In this document: positions 2,668 to 11,531 of the stretch, one piece after another
Layout: each line of letters begins with the position of its first letter
Position numbering within the stretch: position 1 is the first letter of the stretch
Origin: Methanoregula sp.
GTDB lineage: Archaea > Halobacteriota > Methanomicrobia > Methanomicrobiales > Methanospirillaceae
DNA length: 64,000 bases
Assembly (NCBI RefSeq): GCF_028712425.1
Contig: NZ_JAQTQD010000014.1
Span: forward strand, 1-64,000
Reading direction: 5' to 3'
Notes under the pieces: model-generated
What the model saw: only the letters and a program-made list of their open reading frames with translations
Told to the model about the DNA's origin: nothing
The model's database searches: none
Made by a program: the position numbers and the translations under genes

Positions 2668-2877
2668 TAGTGAATTGCTGAAGGACTAATGTATTTTTTA
2701 CAGAGCGCGCCGCACTTGCGGAGCCTTCGCTGTTGGGTGAAACAGTTTTACAAGAGTGGCATTTTTTCGAGAGAACTATTACCCATACTAACAATGCGAT
2801 GATTCAAATTCGAACCTCTCATTGTCGACTCTTGTCTGCGATAATCACAAGCCTCTTCTTTCGAAACATCTCCACCA

Positions 2878-3027
2878 GTGACATCCGTAAAAGAAGAGAT
2901 CTTTGGCAAAATCCTCGAAGAAGAACGAAAAGCAAAAAACATATCTCAGGAAAAACTCGCCAAACTCACCGGCCTCGACCGGACCGCCATCAGCCTCATC
3001 GAGAACGGGAAGCGGAGCCCGACCTTC
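2878..3027 (+). pseudogene. Truncated XRE-family HTH regulator
   Basis: Fifty codons from a GTG start encode a helix-turn-helix N-terminus (EEIFGKILEEERKAKNISQ, then a recognition region containing LIENGKRSPTF). It nearly matches the intact XRE protein at 5076-5330. Homology stops at SPTF, after which the frame runs into unrelated Gly/Ala/Arg-rich sequence. The upstream DNA (from about 2822) also matches the region upstream of the intact copy, so this is a broken duplicate in inverted orientation. A truncated peptide could still be made; I call it a pseudogene because the dimerising C-terminal half is missing. Confidence 0.7.
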
Positions 3028-3082
3028 ACGGGGCTAGCCCACGCGGCGAGGGGCGCCAGCCCCGATGAGCGTCAAACCCCCC

Positions 3083-3271
3083 TCACACTTTTGTCTTATA
3101 GACCCGCTCGTATTGTAAAACCAGATTTCCCTTTTCTTCCTTCACGATCAGTCGGAAAATATCCCCTGGATTAATCCCCTTGGAAGTAACGACATCAGAA
3201 GGAATCGTGAGGTCGAGAGAATTGGATCCATAATGGTACCGGGACTTGACCGTATTTTCCTTCTCTGCCAT
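3083..3271 (-). CDS. AbrB/SpoVT-type DNA-binding protein (antitoxin-like)
   Basis: A 62-aa protein starting MAEKENTVKSRYHYG. The stretch SLDLTIPSDVVTSKGINPGD followed by alternating hydrophobic strands (FRLIVKEE, LVLQYERV) is the swapped-hairpin AbrB fold used by many antitoxins and transition-state regulators. A longer frame starts at 3295, but the second ATG (3271) gives the usual family length. No toxin gene is visible next to it, so it is an orphan or its partner was lost. The ~475-bp repeat copy A begins about 100 bp upstream. Confidence 0.75.
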   Translation of the reverse strand: MAEKENTVKSRYHYGSNSLDLTIPSDVVTSKGINPGDIFRLIVKEEKGNLVLQYERVYKTKV

Positions 3272-3372
3272 ACAATCCAATGGGATTATGCACATTTAGG
3301 TATTAATGCATAATTAGTAAAAAATTTACAAAATGTGCATAGATTTATTGTCATAACCATCTTACACCTCCA

Positions 3373-3845
3373 CCGGTGCACTGGTGACCAAATGTTCGTC
3401 ACATCCCGGATCAAAAACTTCCACTCGGACGCCCCCGGCACCAATAGCCAGGTCTGAATACGGATGTTCCGGGAAAATCACCATGCACCAACACTTATCA
3501 AAAAAATATCCGCCGGAAAAAGCCCCGGTAAAAAAAATCTCCAACAAAAAAATTACGGGGAGACCCCCGGATATTGAATCCCTCCCCGTGCACCTCCCGG
3601 CTGGGGATCGCCACTTCGTCGGGATATTTCTGTTCAAAACCTTTAGTTCGTCTGGTTCAATGGTCTCAATGGTTGGGGTCCATGAAGGTAACTGATTGAT
3701 GTGAACAACGATCCCGCTGATGATTCCGGTTCACTAGCTCAGGGCAGGATCGCAATTGTCCACACTATCGATAGGAAATTGCTCTGTAAACGATTTCTAA
3801 CGCAAGCGTCTGCCGGTCGGAAAAAACAATGGGATTTACAGGATG
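3373..3845. repeat. Long direct repeat, copy A (about 475 bp)
   Basis: This stretch is collinear with 5421-5897, starting at CCGGTGCACTGGTGACC and ending near TTACAGGAT, with scattered substitutions and small indels but long identical blocks. It has no convincing reading frame. It includes A-rich tracts flanked by complementary C/G blocks (CCCCGGTAAAA ... TTACGGGG) that could form hairpins. A GATGTGAACAACGATCC block and the CGATTTCTAACGCAA block are shared. A shorter tail of the unit recurs at 7726-7811. Confidence 0.8.
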
Positions 3846-4303
3846 ATTTTAATAAACTCCGGGGCAAGCCCACGCAGCTGGGCCAGCCGAAGGCTGGGGA
3901 GAATCTTGAATGTCGTCAGACATGAGAGATGAGAGGAACGGAGTTCTTTGAAGATCTTCATCGGAAAATCTTCGACTGCGTCAGCCCCATTGAGCGTCAT
4001 ACTCCCCACATAAGAGATCAATAGCGATGATCTCCCCTTTTCCCGCTACACCCTGAAAGCCGTCCCACCCTCTTTTCCGCCATCCAAAGAGACATAAAGA
4101 GACACGTATCCGGGCCCGAAACGCAGGGAAATACACCAGTCCGGATCTGAATCTGCCGATTGCGGAAAAAAGAGACACGCATTTTCACGAATGAGACACG
4201 TAAAAACTCCCGCAACGACCAATCGGAGCCCTGTGAGGGGCCGGATGGGCATATGTCCAAAACTCCAATACAGGTTCCAAAAACCTGGGAGAGAAAAACT
4301 GGC
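3846..4303. other. Gene-free spacer with small shared sequence blocks
   Basis: I see no gene here. The segment GCCAGCCCC-ATGAGCGTCA near 3980-4003 resembles 3053-3072, and GAATCTTGAATGTCGTCAGACATGA near 3901 resembles 8393-8411. These fragments suggest repeated local duplication rather than coding sequence. Confidence 0.5.
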
Positions 4304-4438
4304 TCACTCTTTCTTTGCATGTTCCCGGTAAAAATCGATCAACCGATTGAGGATCGTATCGTAGCTCTCTGATTTCTTCCCAAGATCTGCTATCTTGTCG
4401 CGTGTCTCTGTCTGGATCTTGATCGTTGTGAGAGCCAT
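4304..4438 (-). CDS. Small antitoxin-like protein (DUF7557/VapB-like), 44 aa
   Basis: A short frame on the minus strand reads MALTTIKIQTETRDKIADLG, then KKSESYDTILNRLIDFYREH and AKKE. A strand (TIKI) followed by two helices with the pattern ETRDKI-LGKKSESYDTIL-RLI is typical of small archaeal ribbon-helix-helix-like proteins annotated as DUF7557 or VapB-type antitoxins, usually paired with a PIN toxin. No PIN gene is recognisable downstream, so it is an orphan. Family assignment is from recall of the pattern. Confidence 0.7.
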   Translation of the reverse strand: MALTTIKIQTETRDKIADLGKKSESYDTILNRLIDFYREHAKKE

Positions 4439-4549
4439 CGCATTCTTTTATGCCCGAATATGCCAAGTATGTAATTATCATACCTTTGGATAAATTTATC
4501 CAATGTGAGAACTAATATAATACGAGAATGTGACCCCCGAGATGCCCCC

Positions 4550-4921
4550 ATGCCGCCCCACTCAGTACAACCCGGCTCACCGCCCGACCCCACGATCGAC
4601 ACCCCCCTCTTCCGCTCGCCGTGGTATTCCCCGTACGCGGCCGGCAGGATAACCTGCGGTACCGACATCTACGCAAAGATCACACCAGGCCAACCCCCCC
4701 AATTTTATCTCCTGCACTGGTCGGAGCAAAAACCGGATGCGTATGCACCCGTCAGCGAGGAGTGCACTCTCCAGCTCCTCCGCGGCCTCGTCCTCATGCC
4801 CTATACGGCCAGAGGAATACACTCTGTAAATATCCGGAATTGTCTGCCGGAATTTTTTTTAGGGAACTGGCACTCATGCGATGCAGGGTACGCTTTAAAT
4901 AATGGCCCGTACCGTAAATAG
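4550..4921 (+). pseudogene. Degenerate copy of the 132-aa orphan family
   Basis: This frame is a divergent paralogue of the protein at 7955-8353. Both share a DTPLF/DIPLF start, RITCGTDIY versus TVRSGTDIF, and FYLLHWSEQKPD versus FFLLHWTDIKND, then a helix ending in RGIHSVNIRNCLPEFF versus RGVQYANLAKYVPAFY. After that point the match is lost and the frame ends in unrelated residues, so the C-terminal ~35 residues are replaced. The DNA after the stop (GATGCTGAATCTTG) again matches the DNA after the intact copy. Function unknown. Confidence 0.55.
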
Positions 4922-5075
4922 TATAAGATGCTGAATCTTGTAAAAGATGAAACATCAGAATGCAGAAGATTATCAAACCCGACGCAGGAAAAGAACCCCT
5001 CAGGATTCTTCGAAAGTTGAGAATGAGAAGATTCCCAAAAAGGAATCATCGAATGCGCCAGCGAGCGTACAATCT

Positions 5076-5330
5076 CTATTGCTTCCCGCCTTTCCTTATC
5101 CGGTAATCCGGATCCTTCTTCTCGTAAATCGAGAACAGTTCCGATGGAGCAATATCAAGAGATGAACAGATCTTCAGAATAGTCGAAAATGTCGGGCTCC
5201 GTTTTCCATTCTCGATGAGACTGATAAACGTCCGGTCAAGGCCGGCGAGTTTTGCAAGCTTCTCCTGGGAAATATTTTTGGCTTTCCGCTCTTCCTGCAG
5301 CATTCTGCCAAAAATTTCTTCCTCGCGCAT
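5076..5330 (-). CDS. XRE-family transcriptional regulator, 84 aa
   Basis: A compact Cro/CI-type helix-turn-helix protein. Helices 1-4 span roughly residues 3-55 (EERKAKNISQEKLAKLAGLD and FISLIENGKRSPTFSTI), followed by LKICSSLDIAPSELFSIYEK. Start chosen at MREEEIFG, because upstream codons of the longer frame lie in DNA shared with the truncated copy. It is divergent from repeat copy B, whose end lies about 90 bp upstream. Proteins of this size often repress their own promoter in toxin-antitoxin or mobile-element loci; the target here is unknown. Confidence 0.8.
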   Translation of the reverse strand: MREEEIFGRMLQEERKAKNISQEKLAKLAGLDRTFISLIENGKRSPTFSTILKICSSLDIAPSELFSIYEKKDPDYRIRKGGKQ

Positions 5331-5420
5331 GTTCACTGAGTGAGATTCGGATGAAAAGAGGGTAATTTCTATCGCAGACAATAGTCGACATATTTTTCTC
5401 CCTGCCCGCAAATATCAATA

Positions 5421-5897
5421 CCGGTGCACTGGTGACCAAATGTTCGTTTCGTTTCGTTCCGGATCAAAATCACTTCCGCTTGGACGCCCCCGGCACCAAT
5501 AGCCATGTCCGAATACGGATATCCCGGGAAATGTCACCAGTCACCAACACTTATTTAAAAAAACATCCGCCGGAAAAAGTCCCGGTAAAAAAATCCCTAA
5601 CAAAAATTACGGGGAAAACCCCGGATATTGAATCGCTCCCCGTGCACCAACCGGCCGGGAGTCGTCACTTCGTCGGGTTATTCTGTTCATACCCTTTCGT
5701 TCGTCTGGTTAATGGTCTCAATGGTTGGGGTCAATGAGGATAACTGATTGATGTGAACAACGATCCCCCCCGGTGATTCCGATTCACTGGCTCGGAGCAG
5801 GATCGCAATTGTTCATACTATCGATTGAAAATTGCAGTATAAACGATTTCTAACGCAACTGTCTACCGGTCGGAAAACCTGCGGGAATTACAGGATA
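5421..5897. repeat. Long direct repeat, copy B (about 475 bp)
   Basis: Direct repeat of 3373-3845 in the same orientation. It carries a small local expansion (TTCGTTTCGTTCC in place of TTCGTCACATCCC). Same order of blocks: CCGGTGCACTGGTGACC, CGGCACCAATAGCCA, CCAACACTTAT, CGGATATTGAATC, TTCGTCGGG, TCAATGGTTGGGGTC, CGATTTCTAACGCAA. No gene is apparent within it. Confidence 0.8.
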
Positions 5898-6047
5898 AAT
5901 GGTAAATACTCTAAGATCAGCCCCTAACGATTTCTTAGGGATATCTCCGGAGTCTTCCCGTCAATTATGGTTTGCCAACGATGGATAAAAATCGGAACAA
6001 TACAGAAAAATTGCCTGTGCTTCGTTTCGCAACGCGCTCTAATCTTG

Positions 6048-6389
6048 TTATATTCGTAGTACGATTAACGATTGATCTTCATTCCCATACTTATCCTTTG
6101 CATACATGTATGGCGAATCAGATTTTATTCCTCTTGAAGTCAGGTGGAACTCATCGTAGTCTTTCATCTGGTCCTTCGGAGGAAAATCAACTTTATCCTT
6201 AGAACATTGGATAAGATTATCTCCCTGATAGGTTACCAGGCATCCAAGAACTGATTCCGGAGGAATTTGACCGGCGCTAGTCTGTAATTTTTTTCTCGTC
6301 AGGTGATTTGCAGTACCGTGGTTTGTTTCATTGTGAATCAACTGGAATACCTGATTCAGAATTTTTACGTCTAACCCTGGAGGAGGCAT
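6048..6389 (-). CDS. Hypothetical protein, 113 aa
   Basis: No family recognised. The product is hydrophilic and mixed in composition (for example NHLTRKKLQTSAGQIPPES and CLVTYQGDNLIQCSKDK), without membrane segments. An AT-rich tract with TTTTTATAATG-like sequence lies upstream on the minus strand and could be its promoter. The overlapping frame on the other strand (5972-6202) looks less protein-like. Low-to-moderate support. Confidence 0.45.
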   Translation of the reverse strand: MPPPGLDVKILNQVFQLIHNETNHGTANHLTRKKLQTSAGQIPPESVLGCLVTYQGDNLIQCSKDKVDFPPKDQMKDYDEFHLTSRGIKSDSPYMYAKDKYGNEDQSLIVLRI

Positions 6390-6616
6390 ACAAAGTTCTA
6401 CTACGCGCTCATTATAAAAATGTTTTTAATGTTTTTTTAAATCTCGTAGTTTTTTAAATAATTTTATCTGTTTCCTCCATTGGACGGATCATAAGAACAA
6501 CGGAATACCAGTACCGGAAGTATCTGTTCTGGAAAAGATAATTCGTGAATTTTTATTCTAACCCGATATGCGCTTCAAATGCATAATGTAAAAATGGTAG
6601 GAAAATTTTTTAGAGA

Positions 6617-7513
6617 TTAAATAAAGCGAATTGAGTTTGTAACCTGGTTAAAAATTTCACTCGTGACCATATAATCCTCGGTATCATCGACCGAGGCAAA
6701 TTCATACAAACCCTGGAGTCGCTTATTGTAAATGAGAAGGCGTGTATTGCTCAGGGTAATTGTTTTATTTAAATCAGGAAAATTTGCTTCATCTTCTCCT
6801 TGGGCAACGAGTTCTTTTGCAATAATTGAGAACGTACTGTTGACTCTTAAACTGGGTATATCATCAATCCGTATACATTCATTATTACTGCTGATTAAAG
6901 TGAAACTCGGAAAATTTTTTTTCATTTTTTCGTTAAGAGACTCCAACACGCGTACTGATAATTTACTATAAAGATCCTTATAGGGGAGGTTCTGAAAATC
7001 GATTGTTTTATCGATGTTATAGGTTTCAACGAGGGTATTCAAATCCATGTAGTATATATGAAAACTGCCACGGGTCTTTCTGTTCTTTCTCTCATTTTCC
7101 GGAACATTCTCGGTGAAATAGTATAATACTCCTTGCTGAGGTTTCCACGTACTTGGATGCGCAAACAAAAATTTGCGCTTTTCATCCATTTCGATCTCAA
7201 AACCTTCAGGACAGGGAGCGCCTTTAATCAACTTTAACCGTAATTTGTCAATTATTTCCCGATATTCGGCAAGTTTATTCTGAGACGCTTTGTCATAGAT
7301 TTGGGAATATACAGAAAAAAGAACAAGGAATGTCCCGATAAACCCGGCAATCGCACCGGAAAATGACATATCTTTGATAGTAACATTAGCCGATGACTGG
7401 AAACTACCAAATGTAATTACTGCAACAATCACACTCAGCATTACGATAACAATCAAGGGGATCAGGGGTTTGAGTTCCAGTGATACTGCGGGCTGATTTT
7501 CAGAGCTTGCCAT
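6617..7513 (-). CDS. Membrane-anchored protein with soluble C-terminal domain
   Basis: A 298-aa protein with two N-terminal membrane segments (about residues 15-37, LIPLIVIVMLSVIVAVITF, and 48-68, IAGFIGTFLVLFSVYSQI), a helical stretch, and a ~200-residue soluble domain containing PEGFEIEMDEKRKFLFAHPS. It is followed by ordered beta-strand and helix segments. The soluble domain resembles secreted or lipid-anchored stress-response domains in layout, but I cannot name it. The gene is AT-rich compared with core genes, stands alone in the accessory zone, and has AT-rich flanks. Localisation is inferred; function unknown. Confidence 0.75.
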   Translation of the reverse strand: MASSENQPAVSLELKPLIPLIVIVMLSVIVAVITFGSFQSSANVTIKDMSFSGAIAGFIGTFLVLFSVYSQIYDKASQNKLAEYREIIDKLRLKLIKGAPCPEGFEIEMDEKRKFLFAHPSTWKPQQGVLYYFTENVPENERKNRKTRGSFHIYYMDLNTLVETYNIDKTIDFQNLPYKDLYSKLSVRVLESLNEKMKKNFPSFTLISSNNECIRIDDIPSLRVNSTFSIIAKELVAQGEDEANFPDLNKTITLSNTRLLIYNKRLQGLYEFASVDDTEDYMVTSEIFNQVTNSIRFI

Positions 7514-7954
7514 AACTGCATCGCTTTTAACTTACCTGTTTACAATATAAAATTTTCTAATATTTTATCAAAATTACAATTGTTATTATCAATTGAAAGC
7601 AATAATTTTTGATTAGTTCAATCGAACTAAAGGAACAATATCAAGATTTGTTGGACAACCATCAGGTACTGGAATCTTAAAGATTTATTCGAGTCCTAGT
7701 AACCAGATCGGCGGCACACTCGTTGCCGGAGCAGGATCTCATTGTCCACACTATCGATGGGAAATTGCAGTATAAACGATTTCTAACGCAACTGTCTACC
7801 GGTTGAAAAACCGGTACGATCCACCAGAAGTACAGAATCGTTTGTGAAAATCCACGGGACCCGGTAAAAACCGGATTTTATATACGATAATCAATAGTTA
7901 TATCGTCCGCCTGCCAACAGAATTACCGGATGTGATGCACGAGATGATCCAAAG
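7514..7954. other. Gene-free spacer containing a repeat fragment
   Basis: AT-rich near the start, with no gene seen. It carries repeat fragment C (7726-7811) and the promoter region of the 132-aa protein that follows. Confidence 0.5.
7726..7811. repeat. Partial copy C of the long repeat (tail only)
   Basis: About 85 bp matching the last fifth of copies A and B: GGAGCAGGATC, ATTGTCCACACTATCGATGG, AAATTGCAGTATAAACGA, TTTCTAACGCAACTGTCTA. It ends in a TTGAAAAACCGG variant. Same orientation as the other copies. It precedes the intact 132-aa gene. Confidence 0.75.
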
Positions 7955-8353
7955 ATGCCCAAAAACACAACAACTCCCGTAATCAATCCCGCGACCGACA
8001 TCCCCCTCTTCGTTGTTCCCCGGTTCTCGTATTACACCGGCAACACCGTAAGAAGCGGCACCGACATCTTCGTTTCGGCCATCAAAGACCGGCCGGCAGC
8101 CTTTTTTCTCCTCCACTGGACGGATATAAAGAACGACTGCATCCCACTACCGGAAGCGTGCGCCATCCGTCTCATAAAAATCCTGGCCGCGAAACTGGAC
8201 ACAGAGCGGGGCGTGCAGTATGCGAACCTGGCGAAGTACGTGCCGGCGTTTTACGAACGATCGGAAGAGCTAAAAGACACGATGTTTATGAGCGAGAACG
8301 ACGTGTGCAGGGAGTACGTGAGCTATTTCCGGCAGGAGCCGGAGATTACGTGA
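7955..8353 (+). CDS. Orphan family protein, 132 aa
   Basis: A soluble protein starting MPKNTTTPVINPATDIPLF. Its core, SGTDIF ... AAFFLLHWTDIKNDCIPLPE, is shared with the degenerate copy at 4550-4921, so it belongs to a locally duplicated family. The C-terminal third is helical and acidic. No known domain recognised. The sequence GATGCTGAATCTTG right after the gene is repeated after the other copy, so gene and 3' flank duplicated as one unit. Possibly a mobile or defence accessory gene, by context only. Confidence 0.65.
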   Translation: MPKNTTTPVINPATDIPLFVVPRFSYYTGNTVRSGTDIFVSAIKDRPAAFFLLHWTDIKNDCIPLPEACAIRLIKILAAKLDTERGVQYANLAKYVPAFYERSEELKDTMFMSENDVCREYVSYFRQEPEIT

Positions 8354-8757: not shown

Positions 8758-9856
8758 TCACAACCCAGCATCTCCCTCTGCTAATCGCTCCCGTGCAATC
8801 GCCACCGCACGTTTTAATTTCTGTTCCAGCAGTTTACGGGGGGGCAGCTCAGTAAAATATTCCGCAACCCGGATGCCACTTGATTCGAGCTGGAGGAGTT
8901 CAATATGCCCGGCCGATGAACCAGCACAGAGGATCAGGCCGAGGGGCTGCTCTTCGCCCGGCTGCCGGTCATACCGGTCCAGCCACCGCAGGTAAAGTTC
9001 CATCTGTCCCTTGTCGGCCGCCCGGAACTTCCCGAGCTTTAAGTCGATGACAACAAGCCGTCGTAGCTTCCGGTGATAAAAGAGCAGGTCGATATAGTAA
9101 TCCTCATGATCGACAGTGATCCGTTTCTGTCGGGCAACAAATGAGAAGTCGGTACCAAGTTCAAGAATAAACCGCTCCAGCTCACGAAGGATTGAATTCT
9201 CCAGATCTTTCTCAGAATATGTATCAGACAATCCCAAAAAATCAAGGAAATACGGGTTCCTGAAAACAAGATCCGGCGTCATTATGTCATCGTCACGCAA
9301 CGCTTCAAGCTCTTTTTGGGCGAGTTCTTCCGGCTTCCTTGAGAGAGCAGTCCGAACAAAAGAGCATTCCCCGTATCTTTTCCTGGAGCACCCGGACACT
9401 CCACCGTTCAAGCCGGCACATCTCGGTATAGAATTCACGGGCAAGGGAATCTTCGATATAGATAAGATTACGGAGATGGGTCCAGCTCAATTGTCCACTC
9501 AGTGAGTGGACTATTGAACGGTCCGGAAAAACCTCTGCAAAACGGATCATGTTGAAGAGATTGGTTCTCGCAAACCCGCGGCCATAGTGAGCCGATAACT
9601 GGTCCGATAACAGATCAACCACCTGTTTACCGTACGCAGCCCGCTCATCGCCAAGAATCTCTTTTCGGATCCGCTCACCGATATCCCAGTAGAGCAGCAC
9701 CATCTCAGCATTTACTCCGGCGGCGACACGGAAACGTGTTGACTCTACAAGGGACCGGATATCGCCAAGAAGAGCCGCTGCTGATTCAGGATTATCATGG
9801 ACCGGAAACATTATTTTTCCAGCCGTTTTCCTTGGAGGTTTCTTTGAATGTTCCAT
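8758..9856 (-). pseudogene. DUF1016 (YhcG-like) PD-(D/E)XK nuclease, frameshifted
   Basis: Two overlapping minus-strand frames together make one DUF1016 protein. The first (from MEHSKK at 9856) contains AEMVLLYWDIGERI, YGKQVVDLLSDQL and WSVRVLQEKIRGMLF. The second continues VRTALSRKPEELAQ, LVFRNPYFLDFLGL, the nuclease core DYYIDLLFYHRKLRRLVVID-LKLG and ELYLRWLDRY. The break is at a run of four A on the plus strand (9358-9361), where one extra base shifts the frame; reading three would restore MLFVRTALS. Intact relatives are YhcG/RmuC-like nucleases near restriction systems. It is either a pseudogene or a homopolymer sequencing error; both domains are otherwise well preserved. Confidence 0.85.
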
Positions 9857-10331
9857 AATGATTCCCACGAGATCTCTAAAAATAATTTATTTTTCTCCCA
9901 CGATAAAAGCTGAAGTGCGGAGGGTGAAAGTTCTCATGAACAGTTTTCACAGATGATACTCGCGGCATCAAAAGAAGTCTCACGTGAAGGCCTTGCCAAT
10001 GCCCGGTGATCATCCTTCCAATCCCACCAGAGTATGCCATTCCAGCAATCCATGCTGCAATCGATGATACATGGAAAACGATCTGGAGCACAGGACCGGG
10101 TTTTTGCGCTGTACGACAGGAGTTCTCCGGGACAAAATCACCTGAAGAGGTATGTTCTGTTGTCCGCAGCATATGCGGTGTATCCGGGGTATAGGGAAGG
10201 GGCAGAAAGCATCGTCATTTTCACACCCCGCTCCTTTTCTTTTATTATTATATCTGCAGGGACACCGGTGCCAAAACCTTATTCTGGTAAAACAGACTTA
10301 AACACCCTGAGCACACTGTAACTCTGGCTGG
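9857..10331. other. Gene-free spacer, possible fic fragment
   Basis: No convincing gene. Around 9951-10007 a short frame reads ILAASKEVSREGLANAR, which resembles the RGIIEVSKEALANAK segment of the Fic protein downstream. This could be a remnant of a second fic gene. Several short frames on both strands lack family resemblance. Confidence 0.35.
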
Positions 10332-10379: not shown

Positions 10380-11531
10380 ATGCAGGAAAGCAGGATGGGA
10401 ATCACGGTTCGCCAGAACGGAGGATACCAAGCATATATCCCAAAACCGCTGCCCCCGGATCCCCCGGTGCATTTCGATGACGAACTTCATCACCTCCTTT
10501 CAGAAGCGGACCGGGCCCTCGCACGCCTGGATGGTATGACCGCAATCCTCCCCAATGCCGATCTCTTCGTTGCAATGTACGTGAAAAAAGAGGCGCTGCT
10601 CAGCTCCCAGATCGAAGGAACCCAGGCATCGCTCCAGGGCGTACTTGAGTTCGAAGCAGACATGGTCCCAAGCGATGACATTAACGAGGTCAAAGAAGTT
10701 ATCAATTACATCCGGGCAATGGATGAGGGCCTCAGGCGAACAAGCCATGAACTTTTTTCCATCGCGATCCTGCAGGAAATCCACCGGACTCTCCTTGAGG
10801 AAACACGGGGCGGCAAGAAAGAACCGGGAAAGATCCGCACAGTCCAGAACTGGATTGGCCCGCCGGGATCGGGCGTGCACTCAGCAACATTCGTGCCCCC
10901 ACCCCCAAAAAAAGTGCCGGAACTGTTAAAGGATCTCGAATCGTTCATCGTCACCGATGACCGGATTCCCCCGCTCATCAAGATTGGCCTGGTACATGCC
11001 CAGTTCGAGACGATCCACCCATTTATTGACGGGAATGGCCGTATGGGGCGGTTGTTCATCACCTTTTATCTTTGCCAGAAAGGCATTCTTGCCCGCCCCC
11101 TCCTCTGCCTGAGCATCTACTTAAAACAGCACCGGGAGGAATACTACAACAATCTCCAGAAAATCAGGATCGAAGGTGACTGGGAATCGTGGCTGAAATT
11201 TTTCCTTCGCGGCATCATCGAAGTATCAAAAGAAGCGCTTGCCAATGCAAAGGAGATCATTGCACTCAAAGAACGGCTCATCGATACCCTTGTTAAAAAT
11301 AATGTCGGAGGCTTAAGCGCAGTCCGGCTCATCGACCTCCTGTTTACAAAACCTGTCGTCACGGTTACCGATATCAGTTCAGCGCTTGGCATCAGTCACC
11401 AGCCTGCCTATGACCTGGTGAACCAGTTCGAGAGACTGGAGATTCTCCGGGAGATCACCGGGAAAAAACGGTACAAAAAATACCTCTTTACTGATTACCT
11501 CAGGATCATTGAGCGGGGAACCGGGCAGTAA
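10380..11531 (+). CDS. Fic family protein with C-terminal winged helix
   Basis: Fic proteins transfer AMP or a related group to target proteins. This 383-aa protein carries the catalytic loop HPFIDGNGRMGRLF near residue 215 (His, Asp/Asn/Arg intact) and the N-terminal inhibitory helix motif SSQIEG near residue 78, as in self-inhibited class II Fic enzymes. A C-terminal DNA-binding-like region follows (VTVTDISSALGISHQPAYD, then LVNQFERLEILREITG). The ATG at 10380 follows GGTGAGGAAG. A perfect inverted repeat lies upstream. It appears intact, unlike its decayed neighbours. Target unknown; likely a toxin-like or regulatory role. Confidence 0.92.
   Translation: MQESRMGITVRQNGGYQAYIPKPLPPDPPVHFDDELHHLLSEADRALARLDGMTAILPNADLFVAMYVKKEALLSSQIEGTQASLQGVLEFEADMVPSDDINEVKEVINYIRAMDEGLRRTSHELFSIAILQEIHRTLLEETRGGKKEPGKIRTVQNWIGPPGSGVHSATFVPPPPKKVPELLKDLESFIVTDDRIPPLIKIGLVHAQFETIHPFIDGNGRMGRLFITFYLCQKGILARPLLCLSIYLKQHREEYYNNLQKIRIEGDWESWLKFFLRGIIEVSKEALANAKEIIALKERLIDTLVKNNVGGLSAVRLIDLLFTKPVVTVTDISSALGISHQPAYDLVNQFERLEILREITGKKRYKKYLFTDYLRIIERGTGQ

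What the first reader, a model, noticed from the sequence alone, without database searches (positions are those of the whole stretch)
3373..7811. Non-coding ~475-bp repeat in two copies plus a fragment
Copies A (3373-3845) and B (5421-5897) are direct, near-full-length, and without a gene; fragment C (7726-7811) keeps only the tail. They border antitoxin-like genes and the orphan 132-aa family. Internal complementary blocks (CCCCGGTAAAA and TTACGGGG) may fold. This could be a mobile unit without transposase, a structured RNA, or a recombination site family.
Basis: seen in the sequence. Interest (0 to 1): 0.6.

Follow-up and report, generated by a model that had tools for sequence, protein, structure and literature searches.

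The report
Two archaeal RNA genes, one repressor-paired
The 475-bp "repeat" is two adjoining predicted non-coding RNA genes of a methane-making archaeon; one belongs to a new RNA family that almost always sits beside one of four unrelated antitoxin-like repressors, so it may be an RNA effector kept switched off by a protein.

Summary
The repeat is real (A 3373-3845, B 5421-5897, 85% identical; C is a tail), non-coding, and has relatives in other genomes of the same genus. It is not one unit. Its left ~120 nt ("head RNA", + strand) is a discrete hairpin RNA. Covariance models find 15 loci in 9 genomes, all in one genus; a model built without A and B still recovers both. In 14 of 15 loci the head lies divergent from a small DNA-binding gene of one of four unrelated families (AbrB-like 6, wHTH 4, XRE 3, DUF7557/RHH-like 1). 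A TATA box lies 27-30 nt before the closing stem in 14 of 15, with different operator-like repeats beside it. The same RHH-type promoter drives an orphan 138-aa protein in this window and a head RNA in another genome. The right ~300 bp is a separate minus-strand sRNA gene (promoter, 5' hairpin, terminator with U-run; 8 copies in 6 genomes) whose promoter and first hairpin resemble leaders of secreted-protein genes. Best reading: an RNA effector under exchangeable protein repressors, in TA-like, defence-rich loci. Transcription, repression and toxicity are untested.

The parts
3371..3491 (+). Head RNA, copy A: ~120-nt hairpin RNA closed by GGTGCAcTGGTGA / TCACCATGCACC; predicted transcription start near 3371
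   Evidence: R2 and R3 matches, fold z -3.1; TATA centre 28.5 nt before GGTG
5419..5547 (+). Head RNA, copy B
   Evidence: R2 and R3 matches, fold z -3.9; TATA-like box at the same distance, weaker
3287..3349 (.). Promoter/operator between AbrB-like gene and head A: half sites TATGCACAT (3287-3295) and ATGTGCATA (3333-3341), TATA TTTATT 3344-3349
   Evidence: Read from sequence; repeated at other AbrB-type heads
5370..5397 (.). Promoter/operator between XRE gene and head B: TATCGCAGACAATAGTCGACATATTTTT
   Evidence: Read from sequence; same in F2 and G011b
3083..3271 (-). AbrB/MazE-like gene divergent from head A (start chosen by homologues)
   Evidence: Pfam MazE_antitoxin E 0.0028, below the curated cut-off; homologues at five other heads
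5076..5330 (-). XRE (Cro/C1-type HTH) gene divergent from head B
   Evidence: Pfam HTH_3 E 1.6e-15
3542..3764 (-). sRNA, copy A: 5' hairpin UGUGGACAA/UUGUUCACA, second hairpin, terminator hairpin with U-run (3542-3591)
   Evidence: Alignments and R1
5598..5817 (-). sRNA, copy B; terminator 5598-5645
   Evidence: Alignments and R1
3775..3815 (-). sRNA promoter, copy A (TTGCGTTAGAAATCGTTTACA; TATA 23.5 nt before the 5' hairpin)
5828..5870 (-). sRNA promoter, copy B
7726..7812 (-). Fragment C: sRNA promoter plus the first nucleotides of the sRNA, now ~240 bp upstream of the 298-aa ORF 6617-7513 (-)
   Evidence: R1 match E 7e-6
4307..4438 (-). DUF7557/RHH-like 44-aa gene, divergent from the 138-aa orphan gene; its homologue in G006 faces a head RNA
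   Evidence: Pfam DUF7557 E 2.5e-9; promoter comparison
4505..4921 (+). Orphan 138-aa ORF (likely start 4550): alternative product of the RHH-type promoter; same loose family as the 132-aa ORF

Best explanation
The repeat is two adjoining non-coding RNA genes, duplicated together. (1) Head RNA, + strand: a ~120-130 nt RNA closed on itself by an 11-13 bp stem, transcribed from its own TATA box and divergent from a small DNA-binding gene. Inferred mechanism: the neighbouring repressor binds repeats beside or over the promoter and keeps the RNA off; loss or inactivation of the repressor releases it, and the RNA then acts as the effector of a TA-like module. Repressors of four unrelated folds have been recruited while the RNA is the constant part; related promoters can instead drive an orphan protein, so RNA and protein look like interchangeable effectors. 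(2) sRNA, - strand: ~220 nt, transcribed toward the head and ended by a hairpin with a U-run; it shares promoter motif and first hairpin with leaders of some secreted-protein genes and is probably co-regulated with them. Supported by sequence: both RNA families, promoter spacing, structure, repressor pairing. Inferred: transcription, repression, effector role, any toxicity.
For: Head family: R2 finds seven divergent members in 232 genomes of the order; R3, built without A/B/F1/F2/G094, recovers them at E 2e-10 to 3e-7. Covariation in the central stem, 7 cells with changes on both sides against 3.1 in shuffles, 2/500. Divergent DNA-binding gene at 14 of 15 loci, four families. TATA slot mean score 5.5 against at most 1.1 in any other slot. 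Same RHH-type and wHTH-type promoters drive either a head or an orphan protein. sRNA: eight aligned copies, TATA spacing 23.5 nt in 8 of 8, terminator with U-run; R1; core promoter motif 22 sites against 0 in the reversed control.
Against: No expression data. The head has no consistent U-run after its closing stem, so its 3' end is unexplained. Wobble pairs favour the + strand only weakly (18 against 12). One head (G015) has no divergent regulator; the one at G000:C18 faces a degenerate gene and scores E 0.03. sRNA covariation is modest, and four of its eight copies do not fold better than shuffles. All copies are in one genus, so sequences are not independent.
Confidence: 0.62

Rival explanations
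1. The head is the structured 5' leader of downstream + strand genes, a cis-regulatory element rather than a free RNA.
For: In G094 and G025 a conserved small membrane-protein ORF (TTG start) follows the head on the same strand; no terminator follows the head.
Against: In A, B, F1 and F2 the next element is the convergent sRNA; elsewhere the next gene is often convergent. Downstream DNA is unrelated between loci.
Confidence: 0.17
2. The head is a DNA element: a recombination site (attC-like), replication/repair hairpin, or extended operator.
For: Sharp boundaries at the closing stem; strong hairpin on both strands; arrays with small regulator genes.
Against: Constant TATA spacing; promoter swap with a protein gene; no attC-like RYYYAAC/GTTRRRY ends; no integrase noticed nearby, though a genome-wide integrase search was not made.
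Confidence: 0.12
3. The minus-strand part is not a free sRNA but an mRNA leader/attenuator, either of the following regulator genes or a remnant of a secreted-protein leader.
For: Shares promoter and first hairpin with secreted-protein leaders; regulator genes lie downstream on the same strand in A, B, F1 and F2.
Against: Terminator hairpin with U-run in all eight copies, and in G021 and G018 the next gene is on the other strand.
Confidence: 0.25
4. An old local duplication of non-functional intergenic DNA.
For: Only two full copies in this genome; the copies have diverged by 15%.
Against: Each half recurs in other genomes at unrelated loci with conserved structure and promoters.
Confidence: 0.03

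Closest known systems
Type VIII toxin-antitoxin CreTA (PMC8501985, PMC12737573)
   Same: A small RNA effector silenced at its promoter by a neighbouring gene; known from archaea; effector RNA not conserved as a protein
   Different: In CreTA the repressor is a CRISPR-like RNA guiding Cascade; here a protein gene of one of four families is adjacent. Toxicity not shown here
Type II toxin-antitoxin antitoxins (AbrB/MazE, XRE, RHH/VapB-like)
   Same: Small DNA-binding genes of these families with inverted repeats near the promoter
   Different: The partner is a structured RNA on the divergent side; no toxin protein gene is consistently adjacent
Archaeal intergenic sRNAs
   Same: sRNA gene with own promoter and U-rich terminator
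   Different: No sequence or Rfam match; shares promoter and first hairpin with secreted-protein leaders
Integron attC sites
   Same: Folded hairpin with bulges beside small TA-like genes
   Different: No attC end motifs, and a TATA box at fixed distance

Membership tests
Known RNA family (Rfam 15) | Match at or near the gathering score | tested here: not met
   No match in the window segment (two chance hits far below cut-off) or in ten divergent head loci
Type VIII TA (CreTA) | RNA toxin | not testable with these tools
   Toxicity needs an experiment
Type VIII TA (CreTA) | RNA antitoxin with CRISPR-like repeats next to the toxin promoter | tested here: inconclusive
   A protein gene occupies the divergent position in 14 of 15 loci; no dedicated CRISPR-repeat search was run
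Type II TA | Adjacent toxin protein gene with the antitoxin | tested here: not met
   Divergent partner is non-coding (frame-breaking indels); no constant neighbouring protein
Type I TA (small membrane toxin with antisense RNA) | Conserved small membrane ORF in the structured mRNA | tested here: not met
   Such an ORF follows the head only in G094 and G025
Integron attC | RYYYAAC ... GTTRRRY ends | tested here: not met
   Head ends read CCGG ... CACC(GG)
MITE / non-autonomous transposon | Terminal inverted repeats with target duplications, many copies | tested here: not met
   None seen; three heads in the own genome, none outside the genus
Archaeal intergenic sRNA (minus-strand part) | Own promoter, conserved structure, terminator | tested here: met
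   transcription itself is not testable here

The most novel reading that the evidence does not exclude
A new toxin-antitoxin type: a structured RNA toxin held off transcriptionally by an ordinary protein repressor, with repressors of at least four unrelated folds swapped onto one conserved RNA, and with an orphan protein family as an interchangeable alternative effector.
Probability: 0.22. Interest if true: 0.85.

Novelty: new variant of a known kind. Interest (0 to 1): 0.62.

Why it matters
In the classification given by a 2025 review (PMC12737573), RNA toxins occur only in type VIII, with RNA antitoxins. A conserved RNA paired with exchangeable protein repressors would be a different logic and a simple system to test. 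It also adds two RNA families, absent from Rfam, to methanogens for which I found little sRNA literature.

Tried and rejected
Treating the repeat as one + strand RNA: rejected once the right part showed a minus-strand promoter and a terminator with U-run. A transposon-end or dispersed-repeat reading of the tail core motif: several dispersed copies instead lie upstream of minus-strand genes for secreted proteins. Protein-coding reading: rejected by frame-breaking indels. Phage, plasmid and viral relatives: none; and viral hits were chance matches to a short core. sRNA-head base pairing: no informative duplex. Fold of the orphan 132-aa protein (pLDDT 81): no significant match in PDB or viral libraries. 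Weak model hits L264, L271-L275, L280-L283, L285 and L176:881 were judged false: coding regions, no TATA, or no regulator; L266, L267, L276 and L277 were not inspected.

Full report
Observation. The repeats exist as described. A and B match over 472 nt at 85%; C is an ~86-nt tail. In the own genome (2.67 Mb, 56 contigs) A, B and C are the only BLAST matches. G033 holds two full copies 0.87 kb apart at 85-86% to B. The genus (handle g1) is probably Methanoregula: the contig sizes of G011 (2,542,943) and G033 (2,820,858) match M. boonei and M. formicica as I remember them; no tool confirmed this.

The repeat is composite. In G094 the head lies alone, and in G021, G018 and G095 the tail part lies without a head at that place. 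So the 475-bp unit is two abutting elements that were duplicated together in the lineage of G000 and G033. F1 and F2 within G033 are more alike (90-98%) than most comparisons with A or B (73-95%), which suggests homogenisation.

Right part: a minus-strand sRNA. The conserved tail, read on the minus strand, looks like an archaeal promoter (GAAATCGTTTATA preceded by a conserved TTGCGYKA-type block). Eight copies in six genomes align from promoter to terminator. The TATA centre lies 23.5 nt before the 5' hairpin in 8 of 8. The body has a 9-bp 5' hairpin, a second hairpin, and a terminator hairpin followed by a U-rich run. Covariation is modest: 6 pairs with double changes, score 0.171 against 0.139 in shuffles (9/500) and at most 0.111 for slid structures. 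Fold energy is better than shuffles only in the four more distant copies. In 232 genomes of the order, model R1 finds the eight training copies, one partial copy in G018 (E 3e-9) and fragment C (E 7e-6), plus weak hits (E 0.01-0.7) that include leaders of secreted-protein genes in G033 and G095 with the same promoter spacing and first hairpin. The core promoter motif occurs at 22 sites in 7 of 39 genus genomes and never in the reversed control.

Left part: the head RNA. Five close copies fold into a hairpin closed by GGTGnnCTGGTGA/TCACCAGnCACC, with z -3.1 to -3.9 on the + strand. Model R2 from these finds seven more divergent members. Model R3, built only from those seven, recovers the five original copies at E 2e-10 to 3e-7, a cross-check that did not use them, and adds G095b, G094b and, at E 0.03, a third head in the own genome (G000:C18). 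Total: 15 loci in 9 genomes, all one genus; nothing convincing elsewhere in the order. G015 (E 0.08 with R2, then used to build R3) and G000:C18 rest partly on my reading of their sequence and context. In the seven-sequence alignment the central stem changes on both sides in three pairs, plus one pair in another helix. Most members share an unpaired CCCCCGGC and a TTCGTCA-like block.

Head and regulator. In 14 of 15 loci the head is divergent from a small DNA-binding gene: AbrB-like (A, F1, G094a, G011a, G012, G095a), XRE (B, F2, G011b), wHTH of the HVO_A0261_N type (G025, G095b, G094b, and a degenerate one at G000:C18), DUF7557/RHH-like (G006). Only some of these regulators were scanned with Pfam; the rest are assigned by sequence likeness. 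The AbrB assignment is weak in Pfam (E 0.0028, below cut-off). Sequences upstream of the TATA differ by regulator type and carry type-specific repeats, read by eye, next to the TATA. The TATA position is constant: 14 of 15 have one centred 27-30 nt before GGTG, and the mean score in that slot (5.5) exceeds every other slot (at most 1.1). The loci are related, so this is a pattern and not a probability.

Promoter swap. In this window a DUF7557 gene (4307-4438) is divergent from the 138-aa orphan gene. In G006 a close homologue faces a head. The two promoters are nearly identical through GGATAAATTTATCC and then unrelated, one leading to a protein and the other to the head. A wHTH pair (L200/L201 against L278) shows a similar design. 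This argues that the head is transcribed on the + strand as an effector equivalent to a protein gene.

Context. Heads lie near defence genes in several genomes: DndB and a DndC-like gene and HepT (G011), a TIR-STAND protein (G095), Vsr and GmrSD (G094), and a type III methyltransferase in this window. No test of enrichment was made.

Mechanism. Supported by sequence: two RNA families, their promoters, the structure, the repressor pairing and the promoter swap. Inferred: that the repressor silences the RNA, that the RNA is the effector, and that it is toxic. The logic is like CreTA, where a repressed RNA is the toxin (PMC8501985, PMC12737573), but with a protein repressor. It is not filed as a member of that type.

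Limits. No expression data; few and related sequences; the 3' end of the head is unexplained; strand preference from wobble pairs is weak (18 G.U against 12 A.C); the G015 head lacks a divergent regulator.

Noticed in passing
4505-4921 and 7955-8353; fragment 6473-6520; L200, L201: Orphan 132/138-aa protein family, divergent from DUF7557 or wHTH genes, without Pfam or PADLOC match; AlphaFold model pLDDT 81, no structural match. Candidate protein effector of the same promoter type as the head RNA.
   Followed up: partly
L249 (G033:C1:1505500-1525400): Four genes for secreted proteins with nearly identical 5' leaders (GTGTGGACAA...TTGTTTCACA hairpin and a second hairpin) spaced about 3.5-7 kb apart.
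   Followed up: partly
L208, L212, L214, L217, L222, L225: Promoter motif GGTAAAGCTTTGAGCGAGAAATCGTTTATA, often in divergent pairs, upstream of secreted or membrane protein genes: a candidate regulon of an unknown factor.
   Followed up: partly
2823-3085: XRE gene remnant (+ strand) with its operator, cut by a G+C-rich palindromic short repeat that recurs between units (also 3860-4010, and in L011 and L176).
   Followed up: no
L286 (G011:C1:350000-369900): AbrB-head and XRE-head in the same order as in this window but 8.6 kb apart, with secreted-protein and other genes between them and Dnd genes beside them.
   Followed up: partly
L176 about 7112-7315 (-) and L259 downstream of the head: Conserved small membrane-protein ORF (about 67 aa, TTG start) follows the head RNA in G094 and G025.
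   Followed up: no
5448-5460: Short TTTCG repeat inside the head whose copy number differs between copies A, B, F1 and F2.
   Followed up: no
1132-2667, 8758-9868, 10380-11531: Type III methyltransferase (PADLOC), a DUF1016/PDDEXK-like gene in two frames and a Fic-like gene (the last two by eye): a defence-type neighbourhood.
   Followed up: partly
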